This document shows positions 15,931 through 35,821 of a stretch of 49,520 bases of DNA, in pieces. Each line of letters opens with the position of its first letter. The stretch's first letter is position 1. Source of the stretch: Bifidobacterium breve (lineage in GTDB: Bacteria; Actinomycetota; Actinomycetes; Nanopelagicales; Nanopelagicaceae); contig CAMBGS010000003.1 of NCBI GenBank assembly GCA_945866305.1, forward strand, positions 1-49,520, in the 5' to 3' direction. The position numbers and the translations under genes are program-made. The notes under the pieces are model-generated. The model worked only from the letters and a program-made list of their open reading frames with translations, made no database searches and had not been told where the DNA came from.

Positions 15931-15936
15931 AGCCGC

Positions 15937-15946
15937 AGTCTAGGCT
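15937..15946. promoter_or_regulatory. shared bidirectional -10, ndh and DUF2867 gene
   Basis: Between the divergent starts the sequence AGTCTAGGCT reads TAGACT on the minus strand, ending 6 nt before the ndh ATG, and TAGGCT on the plus strand, ending 7 nt before the opposite ATG. One symmetric CTAG core could thus serve both leaderless transcripts. The gap is only 23 bp and has no ribosome site. Confidence 0.4.
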
Positions 15947-15953
15947 CTGAACT

Positions 15954-31641: not shown

Positions 31642-33615
31642 TTGAGAAAAGTAAGTCTCTTCACAGCAATAACAATCTCTTTAGCCTTGGCAACTGCCTC
31701 AAATTCATACGCTCAAGTTAACTCCGAATTTATCAAGGCAATGGTTCGTGGACCACAGAGCGATGAGTCTGTCTACTTCATAATGACTGATCGCTTTGAA
31801 AATGGCGATAAGAATAATGATTATGGTGGGACCGAAAAGTCATTGGCGATTAGTGGATACGCACCAGAAGATATTGGTTGGTGGCACGGCGGTGATTTCA
31901 AAGGAATTACCAAGCGCTTGGATTACATCAAATCTATGGGCTTTACTTCAATCTGGATCACGCCACCAGTAGTTCAAAAATCTGTTCAAGGAAATTCTGC
32001 CGCCTATCACGGCTATTGGGGCGTTGATTTTACAACTGTCGATCCGCATCTGGGCAGTGAAGCAGATTTTACAGAGTTAGTTTCGCAGGCACATAAATTA
32101 AATATGAAGGTGATCATCGATGTCGTGGTAAATCACACTGCAGATGTAATTTATTACGATAACAGTGGGAGACCACAAGTAAGCGCAGCCGAAGCAAATA
32201 TCAAGAAACCGGATTGGCTTAATTTAATTAGCAATTATCACAATCTTGGAAATAATCCGAGAGTAGGAAATTCAGTTTTAGATGGCGATTTCTTTGGTCT
32301 AGATGATCTAGAGACTGAGAACCCAAAAGTAATCAGCGGTTGGATTGATGTCTGGTCCAACTGGATTACCAAGTTTAATATTGACGGCATGCGAATAGAT
32401 ACTTTTAAGCACGTAAATCCAGAATTTTGGAGAGTATTTATCCCGAAGATTCAAGCAGCCGCAGTTGCAGCAGGCAAGAAAGATTTTCCAATTTTTGGTG
32501 AGGCCGCAGATACCGATGCAGATTCCTTATCAACTTACGTAGCAGGCGGAGAAGTCCCAAGTGTGTTGGACTTTGATTTTCAAAAGCAAGTAAAGAGTTT
32601 TGTGCAATTTGGTGCTTCTGCAGAAGCTTTAGCAGAACTATTTAACCGAGATGATCTTTATACAACGTCGACCACGAGCGCTTATGGGCTTGCAACCTTT
32701 CTTGGAAATCACGATATGGGACGCATTGGATATTTCTTGAGCAACGCAGTCGCGGTTGGCGAAAACCAATCTTTGCTTGAACGTGCCAAACTCGCCAATG
32801 CTGCGCTATTTCTACTTCGTGGCGGACCAGTTCTTTACTACGGAGATGAAAAAGGTATGACAGGCACTGGGGGAGATAAGAAGGCGCGGCAGGATATGTT
32901 CGCCACCCAAGTGGTTGATTGGCAAAGTGAGTTAAGAATTGGATCAACTCCCATAAAGAGCGCGAGTGCTTATGAGGTGAAGAATCCTTTAGAAGAGCAA
33001 ATTACCGAACTGCAGAAAGTTATTGCTGCTAATCCATCTTTGCGAAATGGAACGCAAGAAGTTCGTTACGCAAAAAAGGGCCTATTTGTTGTTTCGCGTT
33101 ACCAAAATGGAGTTGAGTACGTCGTTGCTTTAAATGGCGCGGATACACCGGCTCAGGCTCAGTTTAAAGTTAGTGCTAGCAAGAGTGAGTGGGAAGTCTT
33201 ATTTGGTAACTGCACTATTTCAGGAGATAACCAGATTGCACTTGCAATTTCGCAACGAAGTTACTGTGTGGCGAAGGCTAAAACTGCAGTAGCCAATAAC
33301 AGCGCGGTAAAGCTTTCGGCTTTAAAGATCACTAAAACCGCCTTACCTTCAGGCTGGAGAGAAGTCTCAGCACAATTGTCGGGAGCCAATTACGCGGAAG
33401 TTACCTTTAGCGTCAGAGTTAAAGGTGGCAAATGGAAGACAATCGGCACAGCAGATCGCCGCACTTTTGCAACCGATGCAACTAAAGGTGGCCTATACCG
33501 CGTTTACTTACACCCAGAAGATTTTAAAAAGGGAAGTACTGTCGAAGTGATAGCCGCAACCGTTGATGGCAAGAAGAAAGTGCAACTGTCACAAATTGTT
33601 AAAGTTAAAATCTAA
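31642..33615 (+). CDS. secreted GH13-family alpha-amylase-like enzyme
   Basis: The 657-aa glycoside hydrolase has a signal peptide (hydrophobic core, then N-S-Y-A-Q) and an alpha-amylase barrel. The four GH13 conserved regions are present: D-V-V-V-N-H at about 160-165; G-M-R-I-D with the nucleophile D253; F-G-E-A with the acid/base E287; and G-N-H-D with H357 and D358. About 110 C-terminal residues form a beta-rich domain of unknown role. It probably cleaves alpha-1,4-glucans outside the cell for uptake by the adjoining transporter. The start is TTG, chosen because it yields the signal peptide and has an AAAGGG site; later starts would lose it. Confidence 0.9.
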   Translation: MRKVSLFTAITISLALATASNSYAQVNSEFIKAMVRGPQSDESVYFIMTDRFENGDKNNDYGGTEKSLAISGYAPEDIGWWHGGDFKGITKRLDYIKSMGFTSIWITPPVVQKSVQGNSAAYHGYWGVDFTTVDPHLGSEADFTELVSQAHKLNMKVIIDVVVNHTADVIYYDNSGRPQVSAAEANIKKPDWLNLISNYHNLGNNPRVGNSVLDGDFFGLDDLETENPKVISGWIDVWSNWITKFNIDGMRIDTFKHVNPEFWRVFIPKIQAAAVAAGKKDFPIFGEAADTDADSLSTYVAGGEVPSVLDFDFQKQVKSFVQFGASAEALAELFNRDDLYTTSTTSAYGLATFLGNHDMGRIGYFLSNAVAVGENQSLLERAKLANAALFLLRGGPVLYYGDEKGMTGTGGDKKARQDMFATQVVDWQSELRIGSTPIKSASAYEVKNPLEEQITELQKVIAANPSLRNGTQEVRYAKKGLFVVSRYQNGVEYVVALNGADTPAQAQFKVSASKSEWEVLFGNCTISGDNQIALAISQRSYCVAKAKTAVANNSAVKLSALKITKTALPSGWREVSAQLSGANYAEVTFSVRVKGGKWKTIGTADRRTFATDATKGGLYRVYLHPEDFKKGSTVEVIAATVDGKKKVQLSQIVKVKI

Positions 33616-34436
33616 CCTTTTAGCCAGAAACGCAGCGGTTGATCTAGGTAACTAGCCCAAGATGTCTCATTGTGTCCAGTTTTTTTGTAGACCTTGCTTA
33701 CGAAATCTACTTCCGCACGATATCCCTTTTGCAACATCAACTCATCTGCCAAATTTTGAAACGGCTCGTATTGTTCATCTAGCCCCTTTGTCCCGCGACT
33801 CATCCAAATTTTGTGAGTACCGGGGAGTGGAAGTTCTTTGACAGTTCTATGAACTAGTTCATCGCCACCAATAATCCAGTGAGGTGAAAGAGCAAGAGCA
33901 GTCTTGAATTTATCTGGTTGTTTATAGGCAGCATAAAGAGTGGAAAGTCCTCCCATACTGGAGCCGATCAAAGCAGTGTTATCTGGAGAAATCTCTAATT
34001 GCAGCGATTCAAGTATTTGTGGAATATATGTCTCAAAAATATTTTCTAAATATTGATCTCCGCGCAAATGTACCAAGTCAGATTTAGAAACATTGGGGTG
34101 ATTAACAGGCACACCTTCTTGGAAGAATTGTTGAGGGGAAAGATCTTTTGATCGGCCCAGTGGATCGCTCTTTGAGTTACTGTGCCAAACAGCGATGATT
34201 ACTGGAGGAACGATTCCGGATTCGTAACTAACTTTGAAAGCGTGTTGCGCCATCTCCCAGGTCTTGCCGCGAAAAGTAGATGTCTTGCCATCAAAGACAT
34301 TCTGCCCATCGTGAGCGATTAATAAGTGGCTACTTGGCTCTTGCGGTGCCCACAATTCAACGGTGCGACCCGCAAAATCAAAGCGTGAAACCTCACCTGG
34401 CACCCCGCGAATCTGATATCTCTTAACTAACTCCAT
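33612..34436 (-). CDS. alpha/beta-hydrolase esterase (PF00756-like)
   Basis: The 274-aa product resembles putative esterases of the PF00756 group (antigen 85/enterochelin-esterase-like). The nucleophile is in G-S-S-M-G-G-L-S, and the catalytic histidine in K-T-G-H-N-E-T-S-W. It has no signal peptide, so it is cytosolic. Convergent to the GH13 gene, it shares the last 4 bases, CTAA serving as stop on both strands. ATG 34436 is chosen; an in-frame start at 34454 would overlap the photolyase start. It diverges from phr with a 17-bp gap. Confidence 0.8.
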   Translation of the reverse strand: MELVKRYQIRGVPGEVSRFDFAGRTVELWAPQEPSSHLLIAHDGQNVFDGKTSTFRGKTWEMAQHAFKVSYESGIVPPVIIAVWHSNSKSDPLGRSKDLSPQQFFQEGVPVNHPNVSKSDLVHLRGDQYLENIFETYIPQILESLQLEISPDNTALIGSSMGGLSTLYAAYKQPDKFKTALALSPHWIIGGDELVHRTVKELPLPGTHKIWMSRGTKGLDEQYEPFQNLADELMLQKGYRAEVDFVSKVYKKTGHNETSWASYLDQPLRFWLKG

Positions 34437-34441
34437 AGTGA

Positions 34442-34448
34442 GACAATA
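34442..34448. promoter_or_regulatory. shared bidirectional -10, esterase and photolyase
   Basis: Only 17 bp separate the two ATGs. GACAAT on the plus strand ends 6 nt before the photolyase ATG, and TATTGT on the minus strand ends 6 nt before the esterase ATG; both are read from the same 7 bp. Neither gene has a ribosome site, so both could be leaderless. Confidence 0.45.
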
Positions 34449-34453
34449 GTGCA

Positions 34454-35821
34454 ATGTCCGCTCCGCGCCGAAACATTATGTGGTTTCGCAGGGATCTTCG
34501 TATCGGTGATAACCCTGCGCTCCTAGCTGCGATTGAAACTAGCGATGAAGTCATTCCACTATTTATTTTAGATAAATCCCAAATCACCGAAGCTGGCGAA
34601 AAACTTTTAGCGTACATGGGCCAATCTTTACGGGCTCTTGATCAATCACTCGGAAATAAGTTACATATTATTGAAGGTGACCAAGTAGAAGTTCTGCGAG
34701 AACTAATTGATTTATACGAAGTTAATGAAGTCCATATCTCAGATGAATATGAAAGATACGGTGCAGCGCGAGATGCCAGAGTTGAAGCCGCCGGAATAAA
34801 TCTAATCAGAACCGGAAGTCCTTATGCGGTCAAGCCAGGTCGAGTTTTAAAACCAAGTGATTCAACTCCTTATCGCGTATACACACCTTTTTATCGTGCA
34901 TGGTTAACGCACGGATGGCGTGCACCAGCAAAAACTCCAAGCAAAATTAGCTCACCAACTCCACCTGATAAATATCGCGCCTTTCCTGACTTTCCGATGC
35001 CCACTAATGTGCAGGTTATTCAAGCTGGTGAAAGATCGGCACTTGAAAGATTTAAGAGCTTTTCCAAGAATGGCTTAGATTCGTATGATGAAAATAGAAA
35101 TCTTGCAGCCATCGATGGCACTTCAAAGATGAGTACATACCTCAAGTTTGGGGAAATTCATCCACGAACCCTCTTGGCAAATCTTGGAGAAAGCAAAGCT
35201 CACGATACTTTCCGAAAAGAGATTGCTTGGCGTGAATTTTACGCTGATGTGCTATTTAATAATCCAAATACCGATACGGAATATTACGCACCCCGCTTTG
35301 ATCAGATGAGATACGACAAGCCTGGTGCTCAGTTTAAAGCGTGGTGCGATGGCAAGACGGGCTATCCATTTGTAGATGCCGCAATGCGCCAATTAATTGT
35401 TGAAGGCTGGATGCACAATCGCACTCGTATGGTTGTTGCATCGTTTCTAGTTAAAGACTTGCATCTGGAATGGCAGCTAGGTGAGCGCTTCTTTGCAGAT
35501 CATTTAGTTGATTACGACGTAGCATCCAATGCTCATGGCTGGCAGTGGACTGCTGGGTGTGGCACAGACGCCTCACCGTATTACCGCGTTTTCAATCCCA
35601 TTGAACAAGGTAAACGTTTTGATGAAAATGGTGACTACATCCGCCGATATGTTCCAGAACTTGCACATCTATCGGCCGGTGAAATTCACGAACCTTGGTT
35701 ATATCTAGACGGGTATTCAAAAGGATATTGCGAACGCATTGTCGATCATGCGGTTGAAAGGCTGGAATCTTTGGCGCGCTTGCAAGAGATTAAGGCTGAT
35801 AAGCCTGAACTTCCGCATTAA
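34454..35821 (+). CDS. phr: deoxyribodipyrimidine photolyase, class I CPD type
   Basis: The 455-aa flavoprotein uses blue/near-UV light to split cyclobutane pyrimidine dimers. An N-terminal photolyase antenna domain (M-W-F-R-R-D-L-R-I-G-D-N-P-A-L) is followed by the FAD domain with K-M-S-T-Y-L-K-F-G, W-R-E-F-Y and the W-T-A-G-C-G-T-D-A-S-P-Y-Y-R segment. The FAD and substrate tryptophans look present. This suits life in sunlit water. Its last 32 bases overlap the GGDEF gene, which is convergent. Confidence 0.95.
   Translation: MSAPRRNIMWFRRDLRIGDNPALLAAIETSDEVIPLFILDKSQITEAGEKLLAYMGQSLRALDQSLGNKLHIIEGDQVEVLRELIDLYEVNEVHISDEYERYGAARDARVEAAGINLIRTGSPYAVKPGRVLKPSDSTPYRVYTPFYRAWLTHGWRAPAKTPSKISSPTPPDKYRAFPDFPMPTNVQVIQAGERSALERFKSFSKNGLDSYDENRNLAAIDGTSKMSTYLKFGEIHPRTLLANLGESKAHDTFRKEIAWREFYADVLFNNPNTDTEYYAPRFDQMRYDKPGAQFKAWCDGKTGYPFVDAAMRQLIVEGWMHNRTRMVVASFLVKDLHLEWQLGERFFADHLVDYDVASNAHGWQWTAGCGTDASPYYRVFNPIEQGKRFDENGDYIRRYVPELAHLSAGEIHEPWLYLDGYSKGYCERIVDHAVERLESLARLQEIKADKPELPH

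What the first reader, a model, noticed from the sequence alone, without database searches (positions are those of the whole stretch)
34437..34453. 17-bp bidirectional leaderless promoter between an esterase and a photolyase
The two divergent ATGs are separated by only 17 bp and neither gene has a ribosome site. One 7-bp element reads GACAAT towards the photolyase and TATTGT towards the esterase, each ending exactly 6 nt before its ATG. A single symmetric -10 could therefore fire both leaderless mRNAs. Bidirectional promoters with shared -10 symmetry are known in bacteria; this extreme compactness, with both mRNAs leaderless, looks unusual.
Basis: partly seen in the sequence, partly recalled or inferred. 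Interest (0 to 1): 0.55.

Follow-up and report, generated by a model that had tools for sequence, protein, structure and literature searches.

The report
Shared promoter between two back-to-back genes
In a freshwater bacterium, two genes that point away from each other are separated by only 17 DNA letters, which most likely hold one start signal read in both directions; most relatives that have the pair keep this exact spacing, and similarly tight pairs recur in this group of streamlined bacteria.

Summary
The ATGs at 34436 (-, esterase) and 34454 (+, photolyase) lie 17 bp apart. The 7-bp element GACAATA (34442-34448) reads TATTGT towards the esterase and GACAAT towards the photolyase, each ending 6 nt before an ATG. 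If both A's are +1, the starts are 18 bp apart, with -7T, -11A and -18T met both ways. That is the commonest published geometry of bacterial bidirectional promoters. In this genome TAnnnT peaks at exactly 6 nt before starts.

Of 80 distinct esterase/photolyase pairs from the family, 69 have exactly 17 bp. TGN-NNNNAT-N6-ATG is nearly invariant and often survives loss of the esterase, so the photolyase promoter is well supported. The 7-bp element itself is confined to the window's close relatives. Most others have TTnAAT, and 34 of the 69 lack a recognisable esterase-facing -10. The esterase direction is therefore likely in the window but not shown family-wide.

The arrangement is not unique. 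A 2.45-Mb sample of six family genomes gave 58 double-TAnnnT divergent pairs (controls 0-6), clustering at gaps 18 and 22-24. A second one lies in this window (15930/15954). No transcript data were available.

The parts
33612..34436 (-). putative alpha/beta-hydrolase esterase (PF00756), ATG at 34436, predicted leaderless
   Evidence: no NCBIfam cut-off reached; start region conserved in relatives
34437..34453 (.). 17-bp start-to-start gap, predicted bidirectional leaderless promoter
   Evidence: exactly 17 bp in 69 of 80 distinct pairs
34439..34440 (+). TG of an extended -10 towards the photolyase
   Evidence: gap position 3 T in 67 of 69 and position 4 G in 69 of 69 pairs; kept in 24 of 52 photolyase loci without a detected esterase (less two contig-cut loci)
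34442..34447 (+). photolyase-facing -10 hexamer GACAAT, 6 nt before ATG (-11A 34443, -7T 34447)
   Evidence: A and T at gap positions 10-11 in 69 of 69; TG.GA..AT at 6 nt 13 seen against 0.70 expected
34443..34448 (-). esterase-facing -10 hexamer TATTGT, 6 nt before ATG (-11A opposite 34447, -7T opposite 34443)
   Evidence: TAnnnT at 6 nt is the leaderless signature; when the other strand reads nAnnnT this reads TAnnnT in 14 of 14 pairs
34436..34436 (-). predicted +1 of the esterase mRNA (A of ATG); its complement is -18T for the photolyase
   Evidence: geometry; rule from PMC10268837 passages
34454..34454 (+). predicted +1 of the photolyase mRNA (A of ATG); its complement is -18T for the esterase
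   Evidence: geometry; rule from PMC10268837 passages
34454..35821 (+). DNA photolyase (PF00875, PF03441), predicted leaderless
   Evidence: (best NCBIfam models deoxyribodipyrimidine photo-lyase, below their cut-offs)

Best explanation
The 17 bp are a compact bidirectional leaderless promoter. RNA polymerase with the housekeeping sigma factor binds one near-symmetric -10 in either of two opposite orientations. Bound one way it starts the photolyase mRNA at the A of its ATG; bound the other way it starts the esterase mRNA at the A of its ATG. The two A's are 18 bp apart, so -7T of one promoter pairs with -11A of the other, and each start codon supplies the -18T of the opposite promoter. Only one polymerase fits at a time, so the two genes compete. 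Shown here: the sequence geometry, its conserved length, the genome-wide 6-nt rule, and conservation of the photolyase-side TGN-NNNNAT. Inferred: transcription starts, activity in both directions, the sigma factor, leaderless translation, and competition. Confidence by step: photolyase direction about 0.88, esterase direction from this hexamer in the window clade about 0.7, both together about 0.65.
For: Geometry. Known rule of 18-bp start spacing with reciprocal -7T/-11A and -18T: PMC10268837 passages and PMC12825309 passages and Introduction. Leaderless signature TAnnnT at 6 nt. Gap exactly 17 bp in 69 of 80 distinct pairs with 29 different gap sequences, while the photolyase N-terminus beside it varies in length. 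When the photolyase-facing hexamer is nAnnnT, gap position 12, needed only by the esterase-facing TAnnnT, is A in 14 of 14; with TTnAAT it is A in 3 of 55. In loci of the first type without a detected esterase it is A in 4 of 6 (L185-187, L246) and T in L239 and L251. The photolyase-side signature survives in 24 of 52 loci without a detected esterase; of the other 28, at least 23 read as lying just behind another gene's stop codon (by eye, frame untested). In L009, L011 and L217 the old esterase start reads CCT, in L185-187 CTT. Double-TAnnnT divergent pairs: 58 against 0-6 in displaced controls.
Against: No transcript data. GACAAT lacks the T of TAnnnT. GACAATA is limited to the window clade; its sister IMCC26103 (L181) has TTGAATA and no detected esterase within the 2 kb held, yet keeps CAT at 17 bp. 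In 55 of 69 pairs the photolyase-facing hexamer is TTnAAT without -11A, and in 34 of these no TAnnnT lies 6-8 nt before the esterase; in 21 it lies at 8 nt, an offset only weakly enriched (38 against 25.6). Given gap 17 and a photolyase-side nAnnnT, the esterase side gets nAnnnT automatically, so only one further base (position 12) is independent evidence. The pairs are related by descent, so counts are not independent events. No gap of exactly 17 appears in the strict double-TAnnnT spectrum, whose highest counts are at 18, 23 and 32 (5 pairs each).
Confidence: 0.65

Rival explanations
1. Only the photolyase has a promoter here (leaderless, extended -10). The esterase is transcribed from elsewhere, or weakly, and the gap length is kept by the photolyase promoter plus genome streamlining.
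For: TGN-NNNNAT-N6-ATG is kept with or without the esterase; 34 of 69 pairs show no TAnnnT 6-8 nt before the esterase.
Against: A photolyase-only promoter does not fix the esterase ATG at exactly 17 bp. In the window clade TATTGT sits at the modal 6-nt position. The gap has no Shine-Dalgarno site for a leadered esterase mRNA. Of 11 esterase loci without a photolyase hit, 2 have one (L102, L103), 3 have TAnnnT at 8 nt (L050, L055, L118), 1 at 9 nt, 5 neither; L050 keeps TAGATT at 8 nt while the photolyase-side TG is gone.
Confidence: 0.21
2. The gap is mainly an operator: the common form TGATTnAATCA is near-palindromic and could bind a dimeric regulator that governs both genes.
For: Near-palindromes in many relatives, e.g. 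TGATTTAATCA (L007), CATGATTGAATCATG (L088); kept when the esterase is absent. The relaxed pattern TGNTTNAATCNNNNNATG has 19 matches in 6 of 7 genomes against 2 for the reversed control; one, in G000 and G001, precedes a PD-(D/E)XK nuclease gene in G000, though by reading it lies in the last codons of an upstream frame.
Against: It ends at the -7 position in 69 of 69 17-bp pairs and interchanges with non-palindromic -10-like hexamers across the tree. The stricter TGRTTNAATCNNNCCATG is found only at this locus, once in 3 of 7 genomes. The excess is also expected if TG.TT..AT is simply a -10 form. The window's own GACAATA is not palindromic.
Confidence: 0.1
3. Two independent promoters with longer leaders start inside the opposite gene, and the 7-bp symmetry is coincidence.
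For: The bare geometry is expected 1.41 times per window by chance; a sigma-70 consensus scan finds no site in the gap.
Against: No ribosome site in the gap; positions 4, 10 and 11 invariant in 69 of 69 pairs; strong genome-wide 6-nt peak.
Confidence: 0.04

Closest known systems
Bidirectional promoters with a shared -10 (Warman, Grainger and colleagues; PMC10268837 passages; PMC12825309 passages and Introduction; the 2021 original is not held)
   Same: 18-bp start spacing, reciprocal -7T/-11A, -18T on both strands, one short element for both directions; the window's second pair (predicted 24 bp) is close to their 23-bp type.
   Different: Here both start codons would be the transcription starts, so the geometry fixes the distance between two reading frames. 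'Leaderless' has 0 occurrences in the main text of both papers.
Leaderless genes of Actinobacteria with TANNNT about 12 bp upstream (PMC3160421 passages)
   Same: TAnnnT ending 6 nt before the ATG (esterase side), no Shine-Dalgarno.
   Different: Two of them face away and share the hexamer; the photolyase side uses TG-extended non-TA hexamers.
Divergent leaderless pairs in M. tuberculosis such as prpD/Rv1129c (PMC3898074 passages)
   Same: Divergent neighbours both leaderless; closely juxtaposed divergent promoters reported as common.
   Different: A shared -10 or a fixed start-to-start gap is not described in the passages seen ('bidirectional' 0 occurrences).

Membership tests
Bidirectional promoter (shared -10 type) | two mapped starts on opposite strands 7-25 bp apart | not testable with these tools
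   predicted 18 bp from the two ATGs; no RNA data
Bidirectional promoter (shared -10 type) | -7T and -11A of each direction reciprocally paired | tested here: met
   34443 A and 34447 T; met in 14 of 69 17-bp pairs, not in 55
Bidirectional promoter (shared -10 type) | T at -18 in both directions (usual, not obligatory) | tested here: met
   34436 T and complement of 34454 A
Bidirectional promoter (shared -10 type) | transcription in both directions lost together on -10 mutation | not testable with these tools
   needs reporter or in vitro transcription
Leaderless gene (esterase) | TANNNT ending about 6 nt before the start codon | tested here: met
   TATTGT at 6 nt; genome peak at 6 nt
Leaderless gene (photolyase) | TANNNT ending about 6 nt before the start codon | tested here: not met
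   GACAAT, not TAnnnT; but TG.GA..AT at 6 nt is 13 seen against 0.70 expected over 2155 genes, so it may work like one
Leaderless gene (both) | no Shine-Dalgarno site | tested here: met
   none in either strand of 34437-34453, by reading
Leaderless gene (both) | transcription start within 5 nt of the start codon | not testable with these tools
   no 5'-end data

The most novel reading that the evidence does not exclude
In leaderless lineages the distance between back-to-back start codons is set by bidirectional-promoter geometry (17-18 bp for a 7-bp nAnnnTA core, 22-24 bp for the 10-bp AnnnTAnnnT core). Shared promoters could then be read straight from genome sequence, and selection holds two reading frames at fixed spacing so that one polymerase site acts as a one-or-the-other switch, here between DNA repair by light and an esterase.
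Probability: 0.4. Interest if true: 0.62.

Novelty: new variant of a known kind. Interest (0 to 1): 0.5.

Why it matters
Bidirectional promoters are usually found by mapping RNA ends. If leaderless genes put the transcription start on the start codon, the DNA alone shows the geometry, and it can be surveyed across many uncultured genomes and its evolution followed. It also makes a testable case of two protein-coding genes that must compete for one polymerase site.

Tried and rejected
Sigma-70 consensus scan: 3 sites in 2 kb (3.9 expected), none in the gap; uninformative for promoters without a -35.

A TTnAATC regulon: the strict patterns are found only at this locus, in 3 of 7 genomes and 4 of 5. 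On checking, one copy with CACATG instead of CCATG turned up in the own genome, so I ran a relaxed pattern: 19 matches in 6 of 7 genomes, control 2.

Esterase remnants in 17 chosen loci: none found in 13; L193 gave only a non-significant hit (E 0.21); L208 is a contig-cut copy of the esterase's first 21 residues; L050 and L055 (esterase present) served as positive controls. Old start-region sequence can be read by eye in L009, L011, L217 and L185-187.

L050/L055 as a new gene captured by the promoter: the frame after the ATG stops after 28 codons in L055; L050 was not translated; dropped.

Limits of my scripts: of 122 loci with both genes, none was skipped for a late alignment start; 2 (L117, L252) got no start and are outside the 80; by eye L117 reads CAT, 17 bp, GTG. 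Five rows where the script took an in-gap TTG and one where it took an in-gap ATG were re-read as 17 bp; without that the count is 63 of 80. One search printed 25 of 54; I leave out L208 (hit) and L222 (miss), whose contigs leave only 82 and 30 bases upstream, giving 24 of 52; three further sequences from outside the family were left out by the script. In the tree (quick method, 43 of 130 inner branches drawn open) the start shown is wrong for some rows (e.g. L073, L090, L119, L016-L022, L252); this affects labels, not topology. Of the seven TG.TT..AT cases at 6 nt two are this very locus (G110, G161). Of the esterase matches, 30 came as loci and 60 more were fetched; lower-scoring paralogues and fragments were not.

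Not in print: searches (20 of 70 listed; 15 of 15; 4 of 4; 20 of 1,070 listed; 6 of 6), seen as listings with the starts of abstracts, showed no paper on leaderless-leaderless promoters sharing a -10. This covers only that open-licence library and those terms.

Full report
What is there. On the - strand an alpha/beta-hydrolase esterase (PF00756) starts at 34436; on the + strand a DNA photolyase (PF00875, PF03441) starts at 34454. The 17 bp between are AGTGAGACAATAGTGCA. GACAAT (34442-34447) precedes the photolyase ATG by 6 nt and carries TG at 34439-34440, an extended -10. TATTGT (34448-34443) precedes the esterase ATG by 6 nt. Neither side has a ribosome site, by reading. If both A's are +1, the starts are 18 bp apart; -7T and -11A coincide reciprocally at 34443 and 34447, and each A of ATG faces the -18T of the other direction. 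This is the commonest layout of known bidirectional promoters (PMC10268837 passages; PMC12825309 passages and Introduction).

Is 6 nt meaningful here? In 449,520 bases of the own genome (20 stretches plus the window; my own simple gene finder) TAnnnT ends exactly 6 nt before the start in 44 of 378 genes and 7 nt before in 24, against about 4 at background offsets. Over six family genomes (2155 genes) it is 269 at 6 nt against a mean of 25.6 per background offset. The photolyase-side type, TG.GA..AT, is 13 against 0.70 at 6 nt, none of them this locus. TG.TT..AT, the form of most relatives, is 7 against 0.97, two of the seven being this locus in other genomes. So both hexamers of the window sit where this lineage puts leaderless -10s, although the photolyase-side one is not a TAnnnT.

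Conservation. The window's genus is Candidatus Planktophila and its family Nanopelagicaceae, judged by near relatives in named genomes. Esterase homologues occur in 98 of 251 family genomes searched. Of the loci in hand 122 carry both genes, in all on opposite strands; 2 got no start from the script and the other 120 reduce to 80 distinct pairs. As scripted 63 of 80 have 17 bp; after re-reading six rows 69 of 80, the rest having 16 (2), 21 (2), 28 (6) and 39 (1). The 69 carry 29 different gap sequences. G at position 4, A at 10 and T at 11 are invariant; T at 3 holds in 67. The photolyase itself gains and loses codons right beside the gap, so the constancy is not due to lack of indels nearby.

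Two forms. In 14 of 69 (including the window clade) the photolyase-facing hexamer is nAnnnT, and in all 14 the esterase-facing one is TAnnnT at 6 nt. In 55 of 69 it is TTnAAT; there no TAnnnT faces the esterase at 6 nt, 21 have TAGATT at 8 nt, and 34 have none at 6-8 nt. The photolyase tree (quick method, many weak forks) places the window clade beside IMCC26103, which has TTGAATA, and shows the nAnnnTA form in several separate places, so the core seems to have switched form while the spacing stayed.

Natural experiments. Of 52 distinct family photolyase loci without a detected esterase (two contig-cut loci left out), 24 still carry TGN-NNNNAT followed by 5-6 nt and the start; at least 23 of the other 28 read as lying just behind another gene's stop codon (by eye). 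In six loci the old esterase ATG reads CCT or CTT. This ties the element to the photolyase. For the esterase, of 11 loci without a photolyase hit 2 have a Shine-Dalgarno site, 3 have TAnnnT at 8 nt, 1 at 9 nt and 5 neither; L050 keeps TAGATT at 8 nt while the photolyase-side TG is gone. The esterase direction is thus supported for the window clade and other nAnnnTA clades, and open elsewhere.

Is it unusual? Not in this family. Motif-blind calling gave 265 divergent pairs in six genomes, 16 with gaps of 16-25 bp (the window pair was called at 41 bp because of the start error). A scan for starts with TAnnnT at 6-8 nt both ways and coding support on both sides gave 58 pairs with gaps of 10-80, against 0-6 with displaced offsets. 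Gaps cluster at 18 (5, all with a 7-bp TAnnnTA core), 22-24 (8) and 31-32 (8). Numbers are small and some loci look orthologous across genomes, for instance two of the five at 18. The window holds a second case: 15930(-)/15954(+), an NDH-2-like oxidoreductase and an NmrA-like/DUF2867 protein, gap 23, core AGTCTAGGCT. In 30 of 30 loci fetched with it (the window's own included; 30 best of 116 genomes with a match) AGTCTAnnnT ends 7 nt before a start codon of the + gene, and in 22 of 30 a CAT or CAC lies 6-7 nt on its other side.

Mechanism and standing. I take the gap as a promoter that one RNA polymerase can bind in either orientation, giving two leaderless mRNAs and hence competition. The literature seen says opposing polymerases exclude each other sterically at such promoters (PMC12825309 Introduction). 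Each ingredient is known: bidirectional promoters, leaderless genes (PMC3160421 passages), and divergent leaderless pairs (PMC3898074 passages). The variant is that both start codons are the predicted transcription starts, so that promoter geometry fixes the gene spacing, and that this spacing is kept across much of a family. A regulator site is a smaller rival: a relaxed form of the common motif also occurs elsewhere in these genomes (19 matches, reversed control 2). Direct proof needs 5'-end mapping, which I could not do.

Noticed in passing
window 15931-15953: Second compact leaderless divergent pair (NDH-2-like / NmrA-DUF2867), gap 23 bp, core AGTCTAGGCT; AGTCTAnnnT 7 nt before the + gene's start in 30 of 30 loci.
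   Followed up: yes
L101, L104, L105, L113, L115: Gap 28, yet a CAT remains 17 bp from the photolyase ATG, out of frame with the esterase; the esterase would have an 11-nt leader with GGAG or GAGG and a 5-7-codon mini-ORF starting at the predicted +1 (by reading).
   Followed up: partly
L156 2520-2537 (G000:C17), also G001:C16: TGATTTAATCATCACATG, close to the photolyase promoter form of other Planktophila, directly before a PD-(D/E)XK nuclease-like gene in G000; by reading it lies in the last codons of an upstream frame ending ATGA.
   Followed up: partly
L017, L022 upstream of the photolyase (L016, L020 with a mismatch): Inverted repeat CTGATTCAA-N5-TTGAATCAG just before the photolyase start, no esterase detected.
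   Followed up: no
L184, L197, L201, L213, L238: Planktophila-like loci in public MAG records labelled Bifidobacterium breve or Streptomyces griseus; likely mislabelled records.
   Followed up: no
window 33612-33615 and 35790-35821: Both genes overlap convergent neighbouring ORFs at the 3' ends (4 bp with an amylase-like ORF, 32 bp with an ORF that reads GGDEF), so this stretch is compact on both sides (names by reading).
   Followed up: no
L141-L160, L121-L140, L161-L180, L297-L356: A further cluster of double-TAnnnT gaps at 31-32 bp (8 of 58), where the two hexamers would not overlap.
   Followed up: no
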